Below are positions 2 to 27,845 of a stretch of DNA of 29,184 nucleotides, piece by piece (the stretch's first letter is position 1; every line of letters begins with the position of its first letter). The stretch is taken from positions 1-29,184 of the IMG/VR virus record IMGVR_UViG_3300035698_018036; one strand, given 5' to 3'. The notes beneath the pieces were generated by a model, which had not been told where the DNA came from, searched no databases, and saw only the letters and a list, made by a program, of their open reading frames with translations. The DNA is from a virus. The position numbers were made by a program, and so were the translations under genes.

Positions 2-1222
2 TTTCCATTACTTAACACAGCATCAGTAACTGATATGAATTCAGCTTGGTACAACTGCATTAGTTTAACTTCATTTCCTGCTAACATGTTTAACAATACT
101 CTTTGCACTAATTTTACTAATGCGTTTACAAACACGGCATTAACTCAAACTTCAATAGATAACATCCTTGTTTCTATTAACAAAGCTAATACATCGAATG
201 GGACACTTAATCAGTCTGGTGGCTCTGCTCCAAGTGCTTTTGGTCAATCAGCTATAGATTCTTTAAAATCGAGAGGTTGGGTGATTACAGTAACAGGAGG
301 ATATCAATCAGCGGTTCCACTAGGTATAGCGCCAAGAGCTTGGTGGGATTCCAGCGATACAACAACAATTACTAAGTCAGGAACGGCTGTATCACAGTGG
401 CGAGATAAATCAGGTAATAACTACCATAAAGATCAACCTACAGCGGCTAATCAACCTGCTGTTATCACTGATGGTACTGGTACTGTAATTGACTATGATA
501 ATGTAAATGATTTCTTTACATATAATGTTGGTACATTTACAGGAAAAATGGGTGTTGCTACTAGATCAGGATCATATGTTGCAGATGTTAGTTACAATGG
601 TTCTTTCACAATGCCTACTTATCAGCTTTTTGACGTAGTTGCAGTGATTATTGCTGCAACTATAGATGAAACAGCTTTTAAAGATTATGCAGTGACAAAA
701 GGAGCCGTTAGGGAATTTAGTGCTGTTACGAGTTTGTTCAACGCTTTTAGAGAAAGAGCTGATTTAACTTCATTTCCGTTAATTAACACTGCATCAGTTA
801 ATAACCTGACTTTAGCTTGGTTTTTATGTACAAGTTTAACTTCTTTCCCATTGTTAAATACTTCTTCAGTTACTAGCATGCAGCAAGCTTGGAGAGGTTG
901 CACTTCACTAATAACATTCCCTTTGCTCAATACATCTGCTGTAACTAGTTTACAGCAGACTTGGCAAAATTGTACTTCACTAGCAACATTTCCTGCTGCC
1001 ATGTTTAACAATACACCTTGCACTAACTTTATTAATGCATTTACAAACACCGCACTAACTCAAACTTCAATAGATAACATCCTTGTTTCTATTAATACAG
1101 CAAACACTTCAAATGGTACTTTTAATCAATCTGGTGGATCTGCTCCAAGCTCGACAGGCACAGCAGCAATAACAGCTATGCGTGGGCGTGGATGGACAGT
1201 GACAGTGACAGGAGGCTTTTAA
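2..1222 (+). CDS. Tail fibre / receptor-binding protein with BspA-like repeats, 5' end outside window
   Basis: Probable distal tail-fibre protein. The frame is open to the left edge: upstream of the first ATG (35) it reads FPLLNTASVTD, which matches the internal repeats, so the true start lies outside the window. Visible parts are a BspA/DUF285-type repeat tail, a conserved cap module (about nt 60-300), a middle beta-rich segment with an AWWDSSDTTTI...QWRDKSGN motif typical of LamG-like phage fibre domains (about nt 330-660), then four or so more ~25-residue repeats (consensus LTSFPLLNTSSVTSMQQAW..C) and a second copy of the cap module ending GRGWTVTVTGGF. The repeats form a solenoid used in surface recognition in other proteins; binding to a host receptor is inferred. 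Cap modules of this kind occur at the ends of other phage fibre proteins. The next gene starts inside its stop codon. Confidence 0.85.
   Translation, partial: FPLLNTASVTDMNSAWYNCISLTSFPANMFNNTLCTNFTNAFTNTALTQTSIDNILVSINKANTSNGTLNQSGGSAPSAFGQSAIDSLKSRGWVITVTGGYQSAVPLGIAPRAWWDSSDTTTITKSGTAVSQWRDKSGNNYHKDQPTAANQPAVITDGTGTVIDYDNVNDFFTYNVGTFTGKMGVATRSGSYVADVSYNGSFTMPTYQLFDVVAVIIAATIDETAFKDYAVTKGAVREFSAVTSLFNAFRERADLTSFPLINTASVNNLTLAWFLCTSLTSFPLLNTSSVTSMQQAWRGCTSLITFPLLNTSAVTSLQQTWQNCTSLATFPAAMFNNTPCTNFINAFTNTALTQTSIDNILVSINTANTSNGTFNQSGGSAPSSTGTAAITAMRGRGWTVTVTGGF
141..1095 (+). repeat. 40-bp perfect direct repeat inside the fibre gene (141-180 and 1056-1095)
   Basis: The two copies of the fibre cap module share an identical 40-base core at 141-180 and 1056-1095, 915 bases apart and in the same frame (protein LTQTSIDNILVSI). 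Flanking sequence is similar but diverged. The pair could support recombination that deletes or swaps the central domain. Confidence 0.9.
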
Positions 1223-10485: not shown

Positions 10486-11022
10486 ATGAAGTTACGCGAT
10501 TTGATTGACAGCACGAGACAAATTAGAGTTAGACAATATCCGACAAGTAAGGTTGGCAGCATTGAGTTTAAATATGTTGCTCGATCTAAGATGTTTTATA
10601 TTTATTCTAAAGCGTTTCCTCTTGATAAATCGTCACGTCGTTTTGTGTATCCTATTTTGCTGGTTTTTAAAGGTGTCTCATCAAGTGATAATCAAAACAA
10701 AAAACACCCAATTCCATACTCAGGTGATGGTGTTAATGTTGATCGATATATTGAAAAATTAACTGTCAATATGGATGTCATGGTTAGATGCAGATGCGAA
10801 GATTATTATTTTATGTGGCAATATTGGAATAAAGGCGTTAAGTCTTTGATTGGTGCTCACAAAAAATATGTGAGAAAAACCACAACTTATCCAGTTAAAA
10901 ACCCGCTGCAGCATCCAGGCTTGTGCAAGCATCAATTAGCAGCAGTTAAGTTGCTTATGGATAATAACATTATTGTAAAAAACGTTAAGGTGAATCAATA
11001 TGTCAATAGAATCAAAAGATGA
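10486..11022 (+). CDS. SWIM-type zinc-finger protein in the head-completion block
   Basis: A 178-residue protein with a CxC...CxH signature: Cys102, Cys104 (RCRCEDYYF), then Cys147 and His149 (NPLQHPGLCKHQLAAVKLL). This is the SWIM zinc-finger pattern (CxCx(n)CxH), known from other systems to bind DNA or proteins. The first ~100 residues are beta-rich and include no known catalytic motif. PG.CKH-bearing proteins of this type occur in structural gene clusters of other phages, but I know no assigned function. AAGG lies before the ATG; its end overlaps the next gene by 23 bases. Confidence 0.65.
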   Translation: MKLRDLIDSTRQIRVRQYPTSKVGSIEFKYVARSKMFYIYSKAFPLDKSSRRFVYPILLVFKGVSSSDNQNKKHPIPYSGDGVNVDRYIEKLTVNMDVMVRCRCEDYYFMWQYWNKGVKSLIGAHKKYVRKTTTYPVKNPLQHPGLCKHQLAAVKLLMDNNIIVKNVKVNQYVNRIKR

Positions 11023-18129: not shown

Positions 18130-21100
18130 ATGCAAGAAGCAGTAAAACCTACTGACATGCCAGACTTAATGTCATCAAACGATTTAAGAATGATTGAATC
18201 TGACATTGTTAAAAGCATTTACAAATCAATAAAAAACAAAATACCCTCATTGAAATCCCACAAATCTGTTGAACCAGATTATGAGGACTTGCCATTAAAA
18301 AACGTACCAATGAGTTCTGTTGATGTCTCAAAAGGCGCTGGAAAATTTGACATTGAAAAAGACAGCTCAATTGAAAACAAACTTGTTCTTGATGCTTTAT
18401 CAGCAATAAAAAACAGTCTTGACAAATCGGGAAAAGTCAATAATAAAACAAAACTTGAATATGATAAAAGAATATCTAAAATAGGTGATACTTTTTCAAA
18501 AACTGGTAAAGCTGATGTTGAAAAAATATCAGAATTGTTCAATAGCGTAACATCTTTGACAAACAGGCTTGGAAATAGAATAGTAAAAATAGAATCTGAG
18601 TCAAAAATATCTGATTCTATAAATCAAGCTATGAATAATAACGTCACATCAGCAACAAGCGAGCGTTTAATTACTCGCATATTAGAAGAATATAAATCAA
18701 GTATCAGTAGCGAATTATCAACAAAACTAGAAGCCGGACTTATAAGCGTTAATGATTTTCAAAGTAAACTGGTTGAATCTGGCGTTAAAACTGAAAAGTT
18801 AGATGAAATAAAGAAAGTCGAACTATCAAGAGAAGGTGTTATTAGCTCTGAAATAACATCAAGACTGCATGAAGAAATAAGCCGTTTAGACGACACGCAA
18901 AAATCAGAATTTACAGAAATAAAAAATCTTTACATAAAAAATGAAGTTGACCGTGAATTTTTCTTAGAGTACATGTCTGATTTAACTGATAATGTAAAAA
19001 ACAATAGCACATCAGACTCAATGTCACGAATGACAGAAGTTCTTAAAAGCATTGATGCTAATACTGACCCTGAGAATAATCAACTTACAAATGCCGAAAT
19101 AATTTTAGAAGAAAACAAGCTTGATTTAGAAAAAGAAAACAATGCTTTGCTTAGCAAAACTCTTGGCAACTTATCCGTAGATAGCAACAAATTTGTGGCT
19201 AGCTCTATGCTAGGCCAAGTTTCTGGCTTTGAATCAGCAGGTGAGCTCGCTGGCAGCACTTTAGCTGATAAAGCTTTAGATATGTTGAATGGCGGCGGCG
19301 ATGATAAAAACTCAAGCAAAAAAAGTAAGGCTAACGTTCAAGTTGACGGCAATTCTACAAAGAAAAAAGGAAAGTTTGGTAAATTATTAAGCAAAGCAAA
19401 ATCTATTGTTCCAGGCGTTGGCGCTGCTTCAAAAGCTGTGCCTTTGTTGGCTTCAGGTGCAGCTTTGGCAAGCGCGGGAATTGGCTACTTTAGCTCAGAA
19501 AGCGATGCAGAGCGAAATGATACAGTTAGCACTGGCATTGGTGCTGCTGGTGGTGCGTTGGCTGGCGGTCAAGCTGGAGCGATTGGTGGGGCTTTGTTTG
19601 GTTCTGCTGTTCCTATAGTTGGCACTGCTGTTGGCGGCGTGGTTGGAGGAATTGCTGGTTCAGCTCTTGGTGCTTTCGCTGGATCTAATGTTGGTAAAAA
19701 GATTGGTTCATGGTTTAGTGATGTCACCGATACTATTCCTGACGATGTAAAAAAGAAGGGGACAATTTCAGAGATACAATACATTGATAAAGTGATGATG
19801 AGCTCTGTTGTACAAGCTGCTAAAAGTGGTGGAGAGTATGATAGTTCTGACGTTAAAGATTTGCAAGAACACAGACAAGAGTTAATTAATAAAGATCTTA
19901 AAGTCCATATCAGCGATCAGCTTAAAACAGCTAATTTAATTGATGCATCTGCTGTTGATAAGCACAGATACTTGTCAGAAACTTATGCTGAATTAAAATA
20001 TTCAAATCCTGATCTTTATAGTGCTATTTTTTTAGGACAATCTGATGATATAAAAAATCTTCAACTTAAAGAAACAAATAGCGTTGACATGTCTATTTCT
20101 ACCAACAAAGAACAATTAAAAAATGTAAATTCTTCTGAAAATCTAGAAGCAAGCAACAAATCAAATGATGTTAGCAATACATCTATGTCAAGTACTATTG
20201 ATGCCAAAAAAACGAGCACCGCTGATAATCTCACGTTATCAGAGACGGTAGATGGAACTCCTGTCGTCAATGCAGATTTAAGTATTACTGCGGGTGCTTT
20301 GGCTGGTTCAGCTTTAAAAGATAATATTGTTGCAACAAATAAAGAAATTGATAACGCCCCCACTGTTATAAATTTGAATAACGATAAAGTAATAAATGAT
20401 AAAGGTATCATTGCAAGCTTTACAGAAAAATACATAAAGCCTAGTGCGAATGGATTATCTACTGACGCCATGTTATCAACATCGTTAAACAATGACACTA
20501 ACAACATTGAATCTAACAATAATAATGTAAATAAAAGTAACTCGGACTTAAATGTAAGCACATCAAAGTCAAGTATTTTTGAGAATATTTCAAATCAGAT
20601 TGTTAAACCATTAATTAATAGCGCTTCAACTGTTTTGAATAATGTTTCATCGTCTATTGATTCAATTGTACCAAATTCAATTAAAAGCATTGTACCTGAA
20701 AGCGTTAAAAACATTGCTTCATCTGCTAAAAAATTAATCAATTTACCTAGTGTCAACGACCCTACTTCTACTTCAAAAGGCTTATCTACTGTCGCTGATA
20801 GCCCTTTAAAAACAAACAGCTCTAGTGAATCAAGCTATTCAGACAATCTTTTGACTTACATTAACTCTAAAGATGATGGAATTGTTCAAGTAGACAAAAG
20901 TAATGGCATTAAAAATATTATCAATAATCAACTGGAACAATCAGGCTTAACAGAATCTTCTGCTAGTGAGCAATATGATTATTTGAAGCAATATTATGAA
21001 GATTTAAATAAATCTGATAGTCAACTTTATGACGCTGTATTTAGTAACGCCTCTAAATCTGTTCAAGATTACAAAAAAATTGATGAATCAAAATCAATTA

Positions 21101-22557
21101 CCCTTAATAACGTCAAATCAAACAATATAGAATCAAAATTAACAAGCAATGCTGAATCAAGTGCATTTTCAAAAACATCGAGCGCAGTAGATGAAAGCAT
21201 TAAGTCTCAAAAAAATGAATTAATAGTAAAGGCTATTAAAGCTTTTTCAAATGCTAAAAACTTTGTTAAAAACTCAAATGTCAGTAGCGTCAAAAAAATG
21301 GCAGTTGACACGGTTTCTAATACTAACATTGGTCGGTCAATAACTAATTCTGTGGGAGCCACAAACGCTGTAAAAAGCCTAGACTTATCTGACTCATATG
21401 TAGGCACTGTAAGTAAAAGTAATACTGGTTTGGGTTTTATATCTGAAAAATATGAAAGTGGAGGTAAGGGCGTTGAAACCATTTCAAGCGGAGTTGACGA
21501 TGCTGGCGGTGTAAGTTATGGCACTTATCAGTTATCAAGTACCGCTGGCACGATGGCCGATTTTTTAAGCAGTCAAGAAGGGAAACCATTTAATGCGTAT
21601 TTTGCTAATAGTTCGCCAGGCTCTAAAGAGTTTAACAAAACGTATAAAGAAGTTGCAAAAAACCACACGTCTGACTTTGAGTCTGCTCAGCATAACTACA
21701 TTAAGAGAACTCATTACGATCCTGTTCTGAAAATGGCTGCTGATTGTGGCATCGAAACGTCAAACAAAGCAATACAAGAGGCGCTGTGGAGTCAATCGGT
21801 TCAGCATAGTCGCGTTGGTAACAATCAAATATTAAACGCTGTAGCTGGCTCTGGCGTTGACCTAAGCAATAGTGATTTAGCTTTAAAACAAATATATGTT
21901 GAGCGCAACAATTACGCGAGTAAGTTTGCCTCTCCATCCGCTACTTCAATGCGATATTCAAAAGAGCTTAAAGATGTATTGGCTTTAAATTCAGATAGTT
22001 CAGATAGCAGTGGAGATACCATATTATCATCTAATAGTCGTGTGGATAATGGGGGCGTTAGTGTTGGCAGCAGTAATGCTAGCAATAGCAATAGCAATAG
22101 CAATAGCAATAGCAATGTGGCCAATATATCTAAATCATATTCTCCCTTTAATACAAATGAAAGTAACTCGACTAATAGCAGTTATAATCAAAGTAGCTTA
22201 GCCTCAAACGCTCCAGAATTTTCATCAATATTTACTGAAGAGCAAACAAAAAAAGCTGAAATGTTAGCAATGCAAGGTGCTGATGCAGGAATAATTTCAG
22301 TAGCTGCAGGCATACCCAAAGAAGATGCAATTACTTTTTTGTCTAATAGATCTGGAAATATGAGCACGACAAATCAAGTATACGAAACCTCAAATGGTGA
22401 TTTTAATGCAGGAGTTATGAATAAATCAGTGGTAGATAAATATGAAAATAAACAAAGTGCTCCACAAGTTATTGTTACGCAACAAGGGCAATCAAATTCC
22501 ACAGATGACCACCGTATTTCAGATAATACAGTCTCAATGGCCGCTTTAATGATGTGA
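18130..22557 (+). CDS. Tape measure protein with embedded peptidoglycan hydrolase domain
   Basis: A 1475-residue tail-length ruler, directly after the chaperone. AGGAG is eight bases before the ATG. Residues ~1-420 are helical. Residues ~427-530 are a Gly/Ala-rich hydrophobic stretch of the kind that can insert into membranes during DNA delivery. Residues ~596-634 and ~934-971 are an internal repeat. Residues ~1098-1287 form a muralytic-type domain: ISEKYESGGKG (Glu1106/Glu1109 as catalytic candidates) followed by DDAGGVSYGTYQLSS and ALWSQSVQHS, a pattern seen in phage tail lysozymes. A Ser/Asn-rich linker with an AGCAAT microsatellite and a short C-terminal helix follow. It would set tail length and open the cell wall on infection. 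Confidence 0.87.
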   Translation: MQEAVKPTDMPDLMSSNDLRMIESDIVKSIYKSIKNKIPSLKSHKSVEPDYEDLPLKNVPMSSVDVSKGAGKFDIEKDSSIENKLVLDALSAIKNSLDKSGKVNNKTKLEYDKRISKIGDTFSKTGKADVEKISELFNSVTSLTNRLGNRIVKIESESKISDSINQAMNNNVTSATSERLITRILEEYKSSISSELSTKLEAGLISVNDFQSKLVESGVKTEKLDEIKKVELSREGVISSEITSRLHEEISRLDDTQKSEFTEIKNLYIKNEVDREFFLEYMSDLTDNVKNNSTSDSMSRMTEVLKSIDANTDPENNQLTNAEIILEENKLDLEKENNALLSKTLGNLSVDSNKFVASSMLGQVSGFESAGELAGSTLADKALDMLNGGGDDKNSSKKSKANVQVDGNSTKKKGKFGKLLSKAKSIVPGVGAASKAVPLLASGAALASAGIGYFSSESDAERNDTVSTGIGAAGGALAGGQAGAIGGALFGSAVPIVGTAVGGVVGGIAGSALGAFAGSNVGKKIGSWFSDVTDTIPDDVKKKGTISEIQYIDKVMMSSVVQAAKSGGEYDSSDVKDLQEHRQELINKDLKVHISDQLKTANLIDASAVDKHRYLSETYAELKYSNPDLYSAIFLGQSDDIKNLQLKETNSVDMSISTNKEQLKNVNSSENLEASNKSNDVSNTSMSSTIDAKKTSTADNLTLSETVDGTPVVNADLSITAGALAGSALKDNIVATNKEIDNAPTVINLNNDKVINDKGIIASFTEKYIKPSANGLSTDAMLSTSLNNDTNNIESNNNNVNKSNSDLNVSTSKSSIFENISNQIVKPLINSASTVLNNVSSSIDSIVPNSIKSIVPESVKNIASSAKKLINLPSVNDPTSTSKGLSTVADSPLKTNSSSESSYSDNLLTYINSKDDGIVQVDKSNGIKNIINNQLEQSGLTESSASEQYDYLKQYYEDLNKSDSQLYDAVFSNASKSVQDYKKIDESKSITLNNVKSNNIESKLTSNAESSAFSKTSSAVDESIKSQKNELIVKAIKAFSNAKNFVKNSNVSSVKKMAVDTVSNTNIGRSITNSVGATNAVKSLDLSDSYVGTVSKSNTGLGFISEKYESGGKGVETISSGVDDAGGVSYGTYQLSSTAGTMADFLSSQEGKPFNAYFANSSPGSKEFNKTYKEVAKNHTSDFESAQHNYIKRTHYDPVLKMAADCGIETSNKAIQEALWSQSVQHSRVGNNQILNAVAGSGVDLSNSDLALKQIYVERNNYASKFASPSATSMRYSKELKDVLALNSDSSDSSGDTILSSNSRVDNGGVSVGSSNASNSNSNSNSNSNVANISKSYSPFNTNESNSTNSSYNQSSLASNAPEFSSIFTEEQTKKAEMLAMQGADAGIISVAAGIPKEDAITFLSNRSGNMSTTNQVYETSNGDFNAGVMNKSVVDKYENKQSAPQVIVTQQGQSNSTDDHRISDNTVSMAALMM
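19918..21042 (+). repeat. Internal two-copy repeat in the tape measure (19918-20031, 20929-21042)
   Basis: Residues 597-634 and 934-971 align without gaps over 38 positions with 14 identities (QL....L...SA.....YL...Y..L..S...LY.A.F). They look like two copies of a small three-helix unit, 337 residues apart. Confidence 0.7.
22081..22116 (+). repeat. AGCAAT hexanucleotide microsatellite, six perfect copies
   Basis: Six perfect units encode (Ser-Asn)6 in the linker between the hydrolase domain and the C-terminus of the tape measure. Slippage would change linker length in steps of two residues without frameshift. Confidence 0.95.
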
Positions 22558-22567
22558 GAAAAAAAAC

Positions 22568-23218
22568 ATGCTAGATTTTGATAAACTTGCAGAATATAGA
22601 GATTACTTAGTTACAATAACAAACTCTAAAACTGGAGAAGTGATTACTGGTTTAATAGATAATGATGGGCTAACGTATTCTACAGGCGCAGCTCTAGGCG
22701 AATCAGCAGCAGCCAATGGAATCAAAGGTGCTGGACTTGGACTGGTGCAAGGCGCTGCTAATAGCCTTGGCGCTGGCGGTATTGTCAGTGCTATACGTGG
22801 TGCTTCATATTCAAATGTATCTACAACAATTAAAGCATACGAAGGTTCGGATGAAACGCCTTTCAATATAAGTATGCATGTTTTTGCTACAGATGAAACT
22901 TACAATGATATTCTAAATAAAGTATTAAAATTTACCCAGCCAAATATTAACGGCGCTGGATTGATGATGTCGTATCTTTATGATGAAAGCGATGTTGCAG
23001 GAATAGCAACAAACTACGATATTTTTAAAGAGCAATTAATTCGCGTAACAATTGGTGAATATTTCTTTGCTGCTGGATTGTTTTGTACTGGTATTAATCA
23101 CAGGTTTAGCCAATATGTTGATGAAGAGGGGAAGCCGCTTTACTTGCAGCTTGATTTTTCTTTCGTTTCATATCGTATGTTGAATGCTGAAGAACTGGCA
23201 GGCTGGATAAGGAAATAA
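22568..23218 (+). CDS. Baseplate / tail-tube junction protein candidate
   Basis: A 216-residue protein directly after the tape measure. An N-terminal strand-rich segment is followed by a Gly/Ala-rich stretch (residues ~40-80, GLGLVQGAANSLGAGGIVSAIRG) and then a region (VSTTIKAYEGSDETPFNISMHVF, through LYLQLDFSFVSYRML) with the look of tube-junction or hub-associated beta proteins. I suggest a gp48/gp54-like junction subunit from position. No diagnostic motif. The ribosome binding site is weak (GAGAAAA). One base separates its stop from the next start. Confidence 0.5.
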   Translation: MLDFDKLAEYRDYLVTITNSKTGEVITGLIDNDGLTYSTGAALGESAAANGIKGAGLGLVQGAANSLGAGGIVSAIRGASYSNVSTTIKAYEGSDETPFNISMHVFATDETYNDILNKVLKFTQPNINGAGLMMSYLYDESDVAGIATNYDIFKEQLIRVTIGEYFFAAGLFCTGINHRFSQYVDEEGKPLYLQLDFSFVSYRMLNAEELAGWIRK

Positions 23219-23219
23219 A

Positions 23220-23561
23220 ATGGCAAGCAAAATTGATGTTTATGACATTGAACAATTTCTTTATTTAGAAATGGGATCGCAAGCGTACTCAAAATCTAGA
23301 TTTGTCATTGATTTAAAAAATCTTTCATTCTCTGCAGAAGCTTATTCAAAAGGTGATTTATTAGATAAAGTATCATTTGATTATTACGGAACAGAAGAAC
23401 TTTGGCCTATTGTTGCGCTGTACAATGATGTTATTGATCCATTATCTAAAGATAACGTATTACTCAGAATACCAAGCAAATCAGAAGTTGAAAAGTTGCT
23501 GATTGATTATGTTGAGATGTTGAGATTAAACCCGAGGAGTTCAGTCATTGATACAAATTAA
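23220..23561 (+). CDS. gp53-like baseplate wedge protein (LysM-like)
   Basis: A 113-residue protein. Residues ~44-75 (KGDLLDKVSFDYYGTEELWPIVALYNDVIDPL) match the pattern of T4 gp53-like wedge proteins and LysM folds: D.(I/V)....YG.....(W)(P).I...N.(I)..P. In T4, gp53 stabilises wedge interactions and is needed for baseplate assembly around the hub. The first ~40 residues are extended. A strong GAGGAG (23534-23539) near its 3' end serves the next gene. Confidence 0.7.
   Translation: MASKIDVYDIEQFLYLEMGSQAYSKSRFVIDLKNLSFSAEAYSKGDLLDKVSFDYYGTEELWPIVALYNDVIDPLSKDNVLLRIPSKSEVEKLLIDYVEMLRLNPRSSVIDTN
23534..23550 (+). promoter_or_regulatory. Strong RBS deciding a TTG start for the hub gene
   Basis: GAGGAG at 23534-23539, then TTG at 23548 after eight bases. 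No ATG is found near, and the frame continues as IQINGRCFIGVEMDG, which fits a hub N-terminus. Confidence 0.65.
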
Positions 23562-24636
23562 TGGCCGATGCTTTATTGGCGTTGAAATGGATGGCCTAGA
23601 AGTGTTTAACATCACTCACTTTAAAAAGCTTGTAGTAAATGAAGGTACTGGTTTAACTTTGCCGGTATTTGAATTAACGCTTCATCAATCTGATTACCGA
23701 TTGCACAGAACACTGGTAAGACCAAATACAAAAATTAAAATAACATATGGCGCGTCTGCAACTAATGCTATACCGTATGATTTCATTATTCTTAATTACT
23801 CATTTAATAAAGGAGAAAGTGCCAAGTTTGATTTGGTTTTGTCTGGAGTTCTTGACTTAAGTGACTTTATTAACATACCAACAATTAAACATTTCGACAA
23901 AACAAGTAATGCTATATTGTCAGAGATTAGCACTGTCATACCTATCGTTGAGTATGCAGGTGCTGATCAACAAGTATGGATACAACACAATATTTCAGAC
24001 AAAAATTTTATTGAGCGAGTTTTGGCAAATTCTTATATTAGTGATACTGATGTAGTGATATCTTCACTGAATGTAGGAAAAGAGCTAGTAGCAAGATCCG
24101 TTAAGACTCAATTAAGTAAATCTGGTGTCGTTGTAGCAAACGAAGGTAAGGGTGGCATACGATTTGATTACATTAAAGTTGAGTCTGATGCAGCGGTCTG
24201 GTCTCATTTTTTTTCTGAAGGTCGAACATTACCAGTTTTTAAAGTAAAAGACAGAAGCACAGATTATTACACCCCAGGCTTAGAAAGCATTGGTGATTCA
24301 CAAATATACAATAACTTAACAACTGGCTATCAGTACCCTACTTTGCTTGACTGCGGTAATTGTCACGAAAACTACTATAAAGCATGGGCGGACAATCTTA
24401 GCAAAAATACGCAATTCTCAAATAATAAGGTCTACGTTTTTGTTAGTAATTATTATCTGGCAAACGATGAATTAAAGGTCACTGACACTATAAAGCTTGT
24501 AGTCAACAACTCAAGCTATAATGAATTAGCTGATCCCATGTCTGGCAAGTATATTTTAAGCGAAAAGAGCACAGTAATTACAGCTAAATACGGCTATAAT
24601 CATAGATTGTCGTTAATCAGGGATTATGTGATTTGA
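23548..24636 (+). CDS. Baseplate hub protein (gp27 / gpD-like)
   Basis: A 362-residue hub protein. N-terminal GVEMDGLEVFNITHFKKLVV, with LTLPVFELTLHQSDY and PNTKIKITYGASATN next, follows the gpD/gp27 pattern of two tube-like beta barrels that form the pseudo-hexameric base of the tail tube. The later part has DCGNCHENYYKAW, with CxxC. It starts with TTG, overlapping gp53-like by 14 bases. Next is the OB-fold gene, the usual hub-spike pairing. It would sit at the centre of the baseplate and carry the spike. Confidence 0.72.
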   Translation: MIQINGRCFIGVEMDGLEVFNITHFKKLVVNEGTGLTLPVFELTLHQSDYRLHRTLVRPNTKIKITYGASATNAIPYDFIILNYSFNKGESAKFDLVLSGVLDLSDFINIPTIKHFDKTSNAILSEISTVIPIVEYAGADQQVWIQHNISDKNFIERVLANSYISDTDVVISSLNVGKELVARSVKTQLSKSGVVVANEGKGGIRFDYIKVESDAAVWSHFFSEGRTLPVFKVKDRSTDYYTPGLESIGDSQIYNNLTTGYQYPTLLDCGNCHENYYKAWADNLSKNTQFSNNKVYVFVSNYYLANDELKVTDTIKLVVNNSSYNELADPMSGKYILSEKSTVITAKYGYNHRLSLIRDYVI

Positions 24637-24965
24637 TCAACAAATATAAAGCAAAACATTTGATTGAAAGCTCAAATTCGTTAAAATATGGTATTTATAA
24701 TGGCGTAGTTGTTGACAATAAAGACCCAGGCTATAAGAATGACGGAAATCCAATTGGTCGAGTTCGCGTTGTTATAGCTGAATTAACCGACGGAATACCA
24801 GTTATTTTTTTGCCATGGTATATTTGCAAACATAACGTCAGCACAAGTCCAAATTCTCAAGCATCAATACCACCAACTGGTAGTGAGGTAATTGTAGAGT
24901 TTCCAACAGATGATATTTATAATGGCATTGTAAGTCATGTAATAATAAGCTCGCCCCCGAGGTAG
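24633..24965 (+). CDS. gp5-type OB-fold hub protein, without lysozyme domain
   Basis: A 110-residue protein containing an OB-fold like the N-terminal domain of T4 gp5 or gpV (GVVVDNKDPG..., IGRVRVVIAEL, then PPTGSEVIVEFPTDDIYNGIVSHV). The phrase I(G)RV(R/K)V and the late EV(I)VEF..GD-like strand are typical. In T4 this domain is fused to lysozyme and beta-helix; here it is alone. The start is TTG in a TTGA overlap with the hub stop, with AGGGA nine bases ahead. It ends at SSPPR, a spot that carries one minus-strand GGGGGCG. Confidence 0.7.
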   Translation: MINKYKAKHLIESSNSLKYGIYNGVVVDNKDPGYKNDGNPIGRVRVVIAELTDGIPVIFLPWYICKHNVSTSPNSQASIPPTGSEVIVEFPTDDIYNGIVSHVIISSPPR

Positions 24966-24968
24966 AAG

Positions 24969-26849
24969 ATGACGGTTACTATTTACAACATTCTTGATTA
25001 CGTTACAGATTTAGACAACAATGTATTTCATGTAACACCACCAGAATTTACACCTGCCTTATTTATTGCTATACAAAACAAAAAAAGAAACGACACTATT
25101 GAAAATATAAGCAATTTTATAGAAGCATTCAATTATAATCCATTATTACTGTTAAATAACATTTCTTCTTACTACGACAATGCCGATACCCAAGATACTT
25201 ATTTGCTATTTATCTTGGATTGTATGAAGAAAATGATTTTATTGAAAATAAACACATTAAATTATAAATTGTCTCTCAATAATGTGTCGTTAATGTTCGA
25301 CTCTAATATGAAAAATGACTTTAGCCATTCTCAATTTTTAAAATGGCTAAAAGAAGGAATGACAAGTGATCGTCTTTCTATAGTTTTAGCTTCACAGCCA
25401 ATTAATTTAACATCTACAGAGGCGACAGAGTACACTAATTCTATAATAGCGATTGATGATTATTTGTATGGACTTGAATTAAAAGACGTATTATTAAAAT
25501 CGATCAACTCATATCGATCTACTACTTCTTCAGAAGCCCTAGTTGCTTCTCTATGCGCTCAAACAAATCTATTGATGCCATTGGTTGACGAGTATTTTAC
25601 TGCAGCGCACAACTACAATGAGACCCATGAGCATAAAGACATCGCAATTGATGGTGTCTTTGCTATTTTTGTAGAGCCTGACATTAAATTAGTAGATGCG
25701 CTAGCATATAAAGTTTATTATGGAATCAATAACGCAATTCAAAATTTATCAATCAATCAAGACTCTTCAGATTGTATTATCAGAAATCTACTGAATGAAA
25801 AAACACACAATGCAGCAATTGTTGACAACAACTTGTTTAAGTTGAGGCATGAATTAACTGATATAGACCCACCAGAAAATCCAATTAAACCCAATATAGC
25901 TGTCTTTTTAGGTAATCAAATATCAACAGCAGAAGAAATTGAAGTTATTTTTCGTCAATATAACAATAGTGTCGATAATTACACGAAAGAATCAACTATT
26001 ATAATTAATAGAATTAAAGACCATATTGGTGATCAAGTAAGCGTCATAGATCAAATTGATAAAATAATAAGCAGCAAGTATGCTGATATAAAAGAAAGTG
26101 CTGATGCATTTATTGCAAATAATTCAAACACGCAATACACGCTAGGCATATTAGAAAATCGATTAAAATTAATAACAGAAGATTTGGCTTCTATTATTGC
26201 TGATATAAAATTAAGTCCCACATTAAGAACTGCAGAATTTATTAGCACAGTTGAAAAAAAGGTTGTTTGTCAAGCAATTGATCAAATAGGAATTGTTTCA
26301 TCGTTACAGTCAAAATCAGAAAAATCACTCAATAATATTGCATTGGCAAATTCTTCCATGGGAAAAGCATTGGCATCAGTTTTAAGAAAAAAAAACAAAG
26401 ATGATAATTTGCAAAGTGAGGTTGATGCCATTGCTACTGCAGCGCCAGTCAGCGCCAGTGCTGCGGCAATAGAATTGACTGAAGAGTTATCAAGAATGAC
26501 TGAAAGCTCAGCTAATCAAGCATTGCAAGCTGCTAGACCCTTGTTAGAGTCGATGATGATTCAAGATAAAGTTTTTCAGTTTATGCTGGCTATGAGAAAA
26601 GCCATTGATTCATCAATCAAGATTATGCCTCCTGAATTAACCGACGATATGGTAGCTGAAGGTGAAGCAAGAGCTAATATTTTAATTCAACCAATGAAAA
26701 AAATAGCAGAAAATAATCTTTATCCAAATAATTTGACTCCAGCTGATAAGCCTTCAGGTAGAATGACTTCAATTCGCGGTAATTCTGATATTGTTAATGT
26801 AAAACCATCAATGCCCACTCAAATTGAGGTAAAAAATGACGGCTGCTAG
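24969..26849 (+). CDS. Large unknown protein inserted between OB-fold and spike genes
   Basis: A 626-residue protein of unknown function. GAGG lies six bases before ATG 24969. It is strongly helical, with long polar helices (residues ~320-480) suggestive of coiled coil and an Ala/Ser-rich region with repeated AAPVSASAAAIE near residue ~490-505. A short Pro-rich tail leads into the C-terminus (PSMPTQIEVKNDGC). No signal peptide, no enzyme motif recognised. It overlaps the spike gene by 14 bases. Placement in the hub operon suggests a baseplate or central-hub part, or a protein delivered with the spike. I have no homologue in mind. Confidence 0.6.
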   Translation: MTVTIYNILDYVTDLDNNVFHVTPPEFTPALFIAIQNKKRNDTIENISNFIEAFNYNPLLLLNNISSYYDNADTQDTYLLFILDCMKKMILLKINTLNYKLSLNNVSLMFDSNMKNDFSHSQFLKWLKEGMTSDRLSIVLASQPINLTSTEATEYTNSIIAIDDYLYGLELKDVLLKSINSYRSTTSSEALVASLCAQTNLLMPLVDEYFTAAHNYNETHEHKDIAIDGVFAIFVEPDIKLVDALAYKVYYGINNAIQNLSINQDSSDCIIRNLLNEKTHNAAIVDNNLFKLRHELTDIDPPENPIKPNIAVFLGNQISTAEEIEVIFRQYNNSVDNYTKESTIIINRIKDHIGDQVSVIDQIDKIISSKYADIKESADAFIANNSNTQYTLGILENRLKLITEDLASIIADIKLSPTLRTAEFISTVEKKVVCQAIDQIGIVSSLQSKSEKSLNNIALANSSMGKALASVLRKKNKDDNLQSEVDAIATAAPVSASAAAIELTEELSRMTESSANQALQAARPLLESMMIQDKVFQFMLAMRKAIDSSIKIMPPELTDDMVAEGEARANILIQPMKKIAENNLYPNNLTPADKPSGRMTSIRGNSDIVNVKPSMPTQIEVKNDGC

Positions 26850-27543
26850 CATTCAAGAAACATTAAGTCCAGATTCTGGAATAACATCCGCGTCTGATGA
26901 GCTCGTTGAAGCTGGCTGGAGTGGGGGCGAGATAGCTTCTGTACAAAGCATTATTACTGGCATTTCAGCGCCATTGTCAACTGAACAGATTGAAAGTGCT
27001 TATGCCGAATGGGGAGAATCACTTGCATCATCAGTTAATAGTATAGTGACTAAATCAGTTAAAGCTGCGGAACAATTAAAAACAGCTATTATTTCAGAAT
27101 CTCATGAAGTGTATAATGCCAAATCATCAATAACAATTCCAGATATGCCGCCCAGCTCGCAGATGTTCACTTCAACGACTTCTCTTGATGCTGTGAATTA
27201 CACGATAAATGAGGATTATCCAGAAACTTTTGGTTGGATCGACTATGTCAAGAATTGGATTAAAATTAATAAGAAAAAAAGAAAGGCAGAATTGGTAATG
27301 TCTAGCGGAACTCATATAAAAACTGATGCCGATGGTAACGTCACCATCTATACTAAAGGTAATTTGCGTCAAATCGTCGATGGTGATTACTTGCTTGATG
27401 TGAAAGGTAATTCTGATTTAATCATCAACGGTAAGAGTTACCACAGTGTTGGTGGTCAATTGATGGAAAAATATGGCAGCAATCACACGACTAAAGTAGG
27501 CGGTATTAGAAAAGAAACCGCTACAATTATTTTTCATCAATAA
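26836..27543 (+). CDS. Tail spike / puncturing protein with beta-helix C-terminus
   Basis: A 235-residue protein. Residues ~1-150 are helical and polar with no known domain. From ~155 (GTHIKTDADGNVTIYTKGN..., VDGDYLLDVKGNSDLIINGKSYHSVGG) the sequence has the alternating strand pattern, with Gly and Asp/Asn turns, of the gp5C/VgrG-type triangular beta-helix. It would form a trimeric needle shaft under the baseplate with the PAAR protein as tip. GAGG before the ATG. Contains a plus-strand GGGGGCG copy. Confidence 0.75.
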   Translation: MTAASIQETLSPDSGITSASDELVEAGWSGGEIASVQSIITGISAPLSTEQIESAYAEWGESLASSVNSIVTKSVKAAEQLKTAIISESHEVYNAKSSITIPDMPPSSQMFTSTTSLDAVNYTINEDYPETFGWIDYVKNWIKINKKKRKAELVMSSGTHIKTDADGNVTIYTKGNLRQIVDGDYLLDVKGNSDLIINGKSYHSVGGQLMEKYGSNHTTKVGGIRKETATIIFHQ

Positions 27544-27551
27544 GGTTTTTT

Positions 27552-27845
27552 ATGTTTCCCATTGCTAGATTAAATGATTTATGCGCAGGCCATGGCTGCT
27601 ACTTTCCTAGAATGGCTATCGTTGGCGCTCCAACTGTCTTTGCAAATGGAATGCCCGTACATCGTCAGTCAGATTTATGGGCTATACACGCTTGCGGTAA
27701 GCCACATGGAGGATTTACCATCCTAGGGTCTACAAAAGTTTTTGCTAATGGGCTGCCAGTAGCTAGAATGGGCGATGTGATTGGTGACATGATAGAATGT
27801 GGTACTGCCATTGCAGTAGGTTCGACTAATGTATTTTCAGGTTGA
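27552..27845 (+). CDS. PAAR-domain spike tip
   Basis: A 97-residue PAAR protein, normal length for a stand-alone tip. It has the family's repeated motif (VFANGMPVHRQSD and VFANGLPVARMGD) and metal-ligand candidates His14, His46, Cys48, His52 and Cys83. PAAR proteins fold into a small cone that sharpens the beta-helix spike and can carry cargo. It follows the spike gene by nine bases. Confidence 0.92.
   Translation: MFPIARLNDLCAGHGCYFPRMAIVGAPTVFANGMPVHRQSDLWAIHACGKPHGGFTILGSTKVFANGLPVARMGDVIGDMIECGTAIAVGSTNVFSG

What the first reader, a model, noticed from the sequence alone, without database searches (positions are those of the whole stretch)
21421..27845. T4 gp5 functions distributed over several genes, lysozyme moved to the tape measure
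T4 gp5 joins OB fold, lysozyme and beta-helix. Here the OB fold (24633-24965), beta-helix spike (26836-27543) and PAAR tip (27552-27845) are separate, and the only muralytic domain I see is inside the tape measure (about 21421-21990). Wall degradation would then happen when the tape measure is released rather than at the spike.
Basis: partly seen in the sequence, partly recalled or inferred. Interest (0 to 1): 0.6.

Follow-up and report, generated by a model that had tools for sequence, protein, structure and literature searches.

The report
Split phage spike, lytic tape measure
This virus keeps its cell-wall-cutting enzyme domain inside the long protein that fills its tail rather than on the puncturing needle, as phage P1 is thought to do; the less usual part is that the needle is split over two genes with a third, unexplained gene between them.

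Summary
The tape-measure-position protein (18130-22557) carries a VgrG3-like peptidoglycan-hydrolase domain (PF21277, E 5e-44, residues 1101-1269) with its Glu/Asp pair intact. OB domain, gp5-type needle and PAAR tip are separate genes; no lytic family was found in them. "Lysozyme moved to the tape measure" is only partly right. The domain is not the T4 gp5 lysozyme family. A lysozyme-free needle plus a lytic tape measure is already published for phage P1, and I found this family in 30 other viral loci in the tape-measure slot. Lysozyme-free needles are the common form among relatives. Lytic modules look exchangeable: one relative has a T4-family lysozyme in its tape measure (L009), another has the VgrG3-type domain on a T4-type gp5 (L156), and a close relative shows none (L010). 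Unusual is the split of OB and needle around a 620-720-residue protein, seen only here and in Carin-5, YerA41, GN1 and L010; its role is unknown and its structure prediction failed. Open: enzymatic activity, timing of release, and whether the rest of the genome, outside this 29-kb fragment, encodes another virion lysin, as YerA41's appears to.

The parts
18130..22557 (+). tape measure protein, 1475 aa, carrying the lytic domain
   Evidence: position between tube/chaperone genes and PmgG-like junction gene; weak hits to tape-measure PHROGs phrog_23574 and phrog_794 over 370-546; homologues in Carin-5 and YerA41
19528..19704 (+). glycine-zipper / hydrophobic stretch of the tape measure (residues 467-525)
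   Evidence: G 21%, A 18% in 416-540; hydropathy peak at 483-519
20080..21399 (+). S/N-rich stretch (residues 651-1090), mostly absent from Carin-5 and YerA41
   Evidence: S 19%, N 14%; alignment gap
21430..21939 (+). VgrG3-like peptidoglycan hydrolase domain (residues 1101-1269); Glu1109 and Asp1124 conserved
   Evidence: PF21277 E 5e-44; 4NOO E 2e-27; alignment
22501..22554 (+). conserved tape-measure C-terminal end (TDDHRISDNTVSMAALMM)
   Evidence: similar endings in Carin-5, YerA41, Sen-NF, PaBG, Yoloswag, L009, L012-L014
22568..23218 (+). PmgG-like protein (P1 PmgG is called a gp48-like tube-baseplate junction in PMC9024508)
   Evidence: phrog_1114 E 3e-6
23220..23561 (+). baseplate wedge protein, gp53-like position
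   Evidence: phrog_7145 E 5e-5, phrog_15542 E 8e-6
23548..24636 (+). hub protein (gp27-like position)
   Evidence: profile match to the longer Yoloswag/Sen-NF hub-position protein, probability 97.7 over 325 columns; gp27 role inferred
24633..24965 (+). stand-alone OB protein, 110 aa
   Evidence: PF04717 E 3e-5, phrog_430 E 1e-12
24969..26849 (+). 626-aa protein of unknown function, encoded between OB and needle
   Evidence: homologues only in Carin-5, YerA41, GN1, L010 among loci held; no family hit
26836..27543 (+). needle protein; residues ~124-235 (27205-27540) are the gp5-type beta part
   Evidence: weak AlphaFold model with helix 49-88 and strands 131-172
27552..27845 (+). PAAR tip protein
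   Evidence: PF05488 E 8e-11, phrog_281 E 2e-27

Best explanation
This is the tail-tip module of a contractile-tailed phage related to Carin-5 and YerA41. It has a needle without lysozyme and carries a probable entry muramidase in its tape measure. Shown by sequence: domain identities, gene order, conservation of the catalytic-site residues, and the split of OB and needle. Inferred: the OB trimer caps the hub and needle plus PAAR form the tip; on sheath contraction the needle breaches the outer membrane and leaves; the tape measure then exits with its C-terminal end first, so that the lytic domain, about 200 residues from that end, reaches the periplasm early and cuts glycan strands, while the glycine-zipper stretch may enter the inner membrane for DNA passage. 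The 626-residue protein is probably part of the central needle assembly or is ejected with it.
For: PF21277 in the tape-measure slot of the window, Carin-5, YerA41, Yoloswag, Sen-NF, PaBG, AR9 and 30 IMG/VR loci directly upstream of a PmgG-like gene. Catalytic-site Glu/Asp conserved. No lysozyme in the OB and needle proteins. OB and needle match T4 gp5 on either side of its lysozyme. Shared tape-measure C-terminal ending, and in diffocin the tape-measure C-terminal helix contacts the spike (PMC10996793). The P1 precedent states the same division of labour (PMC9024508). YerA41 g028, by gene order the homologous tape measure, is marked as found in virions (PMC7354516; mapping mine).
Against: No activity shown. 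L010, with the same split module, has no recognised lytic domain in its tape measure, so the domain is not indispensable to the architecture. YerA41 has a GH108 muramidase that by gene order is the 'Endolysin' marked as found in virions, so another protein could do the wall cutting. Published tail lengths of YerA41 and PaBG exceed 1.5 A per residue of their tape measures, so the ruler role is not fully consistent.
Confidence: 0.72

Rival explanations
1. Literal relocation: an ancestor had a T4-like gp5 with lysozyme, and that lysozyme was transferred to the tape measure while gp5 broke into OB and needle genes.
For: Both lytic families occur at both sites: T4-family lysozyme in the L009 tape measure, VgrG3-type domain on a T4-type gp5 in L156. 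OB and needle here flank the position of the gp5 lysozyme.
Against: The window's domain is a different family from the T4 gp5 lysozyme; fused, lysozyme-free OB-needle proteins are the common form among relatives; published P1 gp5 also lacks it.
Confidence: 0.08
2. The lytic domain in the tape measure is not the entry enzyme: another virion lysin, encoded outside the fragment, opens the wall, and this domain is dispensable or does something else, for instance local remodelling in stationary cells.
For: YerA41 has a GH108 muramidase listed as virion-associated. L010 lacks the domain. In mycobacteriophage TM4 the tape-measure hydrolase motif promotes infection of stationary-phase cells (PMC1796659 title and abstract).
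Against: The domain and its active-site residues are conserved over distant phages, which argues for a selected function.
Confidence: 0.15
3. The 626-aa protein is a hidden muralytic or needle-bound enzyme, so the lysozyme function never left the needle.
For: It is encoded between OB and needle, at the place where T4 gp5 has its lysozyme. Its AlphaFold model failed, so its fold is unknown.
Against: No hit in Pfam, PHROGs, NCBIfam or PDB sequences, no profile match to the VgrG3-type domain; sequence looks mostly helical, and three of four homologues have strong hydrophobic stretches, more like a structural or membrane-active protein.
Confidence: 0.05

Closest known systems
Phage P1 tape measure Sit with lysozyme-free needle gp5 (PMC9024508)
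   Same: contractile tail, gp5-like needle without lysozyme, muralytic domain near the C-terminal end of the tape measure, PmgG-like junction protein
   Different: P1 uses an SLT domain and a fused OB-needle; here a VgrG3-type domain, with OB and needle in separate genes and a 626-aa protein between
T4 gp5 tail lysozyme
   Same: OB domain and C-terminal beta needle are homologous
   Different: T4 joins OB, T4-type lysozyme and needle in one protein; here three genes, none with a recognised lysozyme
VgrG3 C-terminal domain of type VI secretion (PDB 4NOO, 4NSO)
   Same: same domain family and same spacing of the active-site Glu and Asp
   Different: there attached to the secretion spike; here inside a phage tape measure
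Yersinia phages YerA41 and GN1, Cobetia phage Carin-5
   Same: same gene order, lytic domain in the tape measure, split OB and needle, homologue of the 626-aa protein
   Different: tape measures of 979-1043 aa without the long S/N-rich stretch; Carin-5 has an extra 169-aa gene between needle and PAAR

Membership tests
PF21277 VgrG3-like hydrolase domain | profile score above the curated cut-off | tested here: met
   150.9 bits against a cut-off of 27
PF21277 VgrG3-like hydrolase domain | active-site Glu and Asp | tested here: met
   Glu1109 and Asp1124, conserved with 4NOO; that these are the catalytic pair is my own knowledge
PF21277 VgrG3-like hydrolase domain | peptidoglycan hydrolysis | not testable with these tools
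   needs a purified protein
T4 gp5 tail lysozyme | OB domain and beta needle homologous to gp5 | tested here: met
   phrog_430 columns 15-105 and 360-436; PDB matches, the OB one weak
T4 gp5 tail lysozyme | T4-type lysozyme in the same polypeptide | tested here: not met
   OB and needle are separate ORFs without PF00959
Lytic tape measure (P1 Sit type) | tape-measure gene position and a muralytic domain towards the C-terminus | tested here: met
Lytic tape measure (P1 Sit type) | needle protein without lysozyme | tested here: met
Lytic tape measure (P1 Sit type) | SLT-family domain as in P1 Sit | tested here: not met
   the only lytic-family hit is PF21277
Lytic tape measure (P1 Sit type) | protein length matches tail length | not testable with these tools
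   tail of this phage not known; in YerA41 and PaBG the published lengths exceed 1.5 A per residue

The most novel reading that the evidence does not exclude
The central needle of this clade is a multi-part assembly in which the 620-720-residue protein joins or surrounds separate OB and needle trimers, or is a second ejected, membrane-active protein, so that the gp5 needle has been taken apart to make room for a new component.
Probability: 0.25. Interest if true: 0.55.

Novelty: new variant of a known kind. Interest (0 to 1): 0.35.

Why it matters
It indicates that the wall-cutting module of contractile phages is exchangeable both in enzyme family and in place: T4-type and VgrG3-type domains each occur on needles and in tape measures. 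It also flags a small clade in which the gp5 needle itself is split around an unknown protein, a concrete target for structural work.

Tried and rejected
AlphaFold of the 626-aa protein (two sequences) gave pLDDT 31 and was not interpreted or searched; the needle model was weak (pLDDT 47). Homology of the 626-aa protein to the C-terminal part of the longer Yoloswag hub-position protein, suggested by an end motif in a first alignment, was tested and rejected. A scan of the GTDB genome contigs with the needle alignment found nothing. Single-sequence and three-sequence OB scans found no relatives. The 626-aa profile's match to chemoreceptor coiled coils and Carin-5's match to SMC models were judged coiled-coil background. 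An assembly error as the cause of the split was rejected because the Carin-5, YerA41/GN1 and L010 records show it independently. No tree was built, so the order of fission and domain gain is inference.

Full report
What is there. The window is a 29,184-base virus record with a head and tail module on the + strand. From the tail tube on, the genes run: tube proteins, a chaperone-position gene, a 1475-aa tape measure, a PmgG-like protein, a gp53-like protein, a hub-position protein, the OB protein, a 626-aa protein, the needle, PAAR, gp25 and gp6. The muralytic domain is PF21277 (T6SS VgrG3-like C-terminal domain), residues 1101-1269, E 5e-44, with PDB 4NOO and 4NSO at 1e-27 to 1e-26. Glu1109 and Asp1124 have the same 15-residue spacing as in 4NOO and are conserved in Carin-5, YerA41, Yoloswag, Sen-NF and PaBG; AR9 keeps the residues with one position less between them. 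That these two are the catalytic pair of VgrG3 is my own knowledge; that the VgrG3 C-terminal domain degrades peptidoglycan is stated in PMC6099711.

The gp5 parts. The OB protein matches phrog_430 (gp5) at columns 15-105 and the needle at columns 360-436. The OB profile aligns weakly to T4 gp5 11-97 (E 0.14) and better to a PDB chain named Gp5 (9vzk, E 0.001); the needle profile aligns to T4 gp5 491-557 (E 1e-6 to 1e-8). The two genes therefore match gp5 on either side of its lysozyme. In L009, L012, L013, L014 and L016 a needle motif like (N/D)EDYPESYG follows the OB domain in the same protein. In the window it lies in the next-but-one gene, after about 120 new N-terminal residues. The split is real: Carin-5, YerA41, GN1 and L010 have it too, always with a 622- to 723-residue protein between. 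A profile of that protein found it nowhere else among the loci held.

How common is a lytic tape measure. The domain was found in 75 IMG/VR loci. In 30 of them its gene lies directly upstream of a PmgG-like gene, the tape-measure slot; 27 of these have an OB protein in reach, all 239-275 residues long and none stand-alone. Pfam scans of 35 OB-bearing proteins (two sets of 19 and 20, four proteins shared) gave OB and gp5 needle families and no lysozyme; one weak MltA-insert match, E 0.015, was not taken as real. Many of the 30 are closely related Erwinia jumbo phages, so they are not independent. In the other 45 loci no PmgG-like gene was recognised next to the domain, and I did not resolve what they are.

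Exchangeable module. L009, with a similar tail module, has a T4-family phage lysozyme (PF00959, E 4e-23) in its tape measure and a fused, lysozyme-free OB-needle. L156, a T4-type gp5 (Gp5_OB E 6e-27) beside genes that read as gp25 and gp6, carries the VgrG3-type domain at its C-terminus (E 2e-30). No lytic domain was recognised in the tape measures of L010 and L012-L014. Both enzyme families thus occur at both places, which argues for repeated gain and exchange rather than one move. No tree was built; the direction is inference.

Mechanism. Shown: domain content, order and conservation. Most of these tape measures, with and without a lytic domain, share a similar (I/L)(S/D)D ending (L010 and AR9 do not), and in diffocin the tape-measure C-terminal helix contacts the spike (PMC10996793). 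The lytic domain, about 200 residues from that end, should therefore sit near the baseplate and leave early. Release after loss of the needle, wall cutting in the periplasm, and membrane insertion of the glycine-zipper stretch are inferred. By gene order, YerA41 g028 is the homologous tape measure, and it is marked as detected in virions (PMC7354516); the mapping of numbers to locus tags is mine.

Prior knowledge. For phage P1, PMC9024508 states that the gp5-like needle lacks the lysozyme and that the activity is likely supplied by the SLT domain of the tape measure Sit. T5, TM4 and a staphylococcal phage are further lytic tape measures (PMC6116005). The central idea of the finding is therefore known. 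The VgrG3-type domain in this slot and the split needle make it a variant. YerA41's needle and, by gene order, its PAAR protein are listed as 'tail-associated lysozyme' in PMC7354516; the domain searches here do not support lytic activity for their homologues.

Limits. The 626-aa protein has no usable model. Other lysins may be encoded outside the fragment; YerA41 has a GH108 muramidase that by gene order is the virion-marked 'Endolysin'. Published tail lengths of YerA41 (about 241 nm) and PaBG (about 220 nm) exceed what one helical chain of their 1043- and 1176-aa tape measures could span at 1.5 A per residue, which is unexplained.

Noticed in passing
L003:10444-13575 (YerA41) and L006:10984-14514 (PaBG): Tape measures of 1043 and 1176 aa against published tails of ~241 and ~220 nm give 2.3 and 1.9 A per residue, more than an alpha-helical ruler allows; either another protein contributes to the ruler or the chain is not one helix.
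   Followed up: partly
window 20080-21399: A ~440-residue S/N-rich stretch just before the lytic domain, largely absent from Carin-5 and YerA41; it could be a flexible tether or extra ruler length.
   Followed up: no
L009:4913-7897 and L156:242-2506: A T4-family lysozyme inside a tape measure (L009) and a VgrG3-type domain at the C-terminus of a T4-type gp5 (L156): the same two enzyme families at swapped places.
   Followed up: partly
L010:1893-4622: A tape measure of the split-needle clade without any recognised lytic domain; where this phage keeps its entry lysin is unknown.
   Followed up: no
window 35-1222: A ~395-aa repetitive protein (repeats around 'SLTSFPLLNTSSVTSM') upstream of the packaging genes; looks like a leucine-rich-repeat surface or fibre protein; not searched.
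   Followed up: no
window 10486-11022: A 178-aa protein with a CxC...CxH pattern resembling a SWIM zinc finger inside the head-tail block; Carin-5 annotates a gene of similar size and place as an RNA polymerase sigma factor.
   Followed up: no
L003:18260-19288 (YerA41 needle and PAAR): By gene order these are the proteins listed as 'tail-associated lysozyme' in PMC7354516 although no lysozyme domain was found in their homologues here; the names probably reflect partial similarity to gp5.
   Followed up: partly
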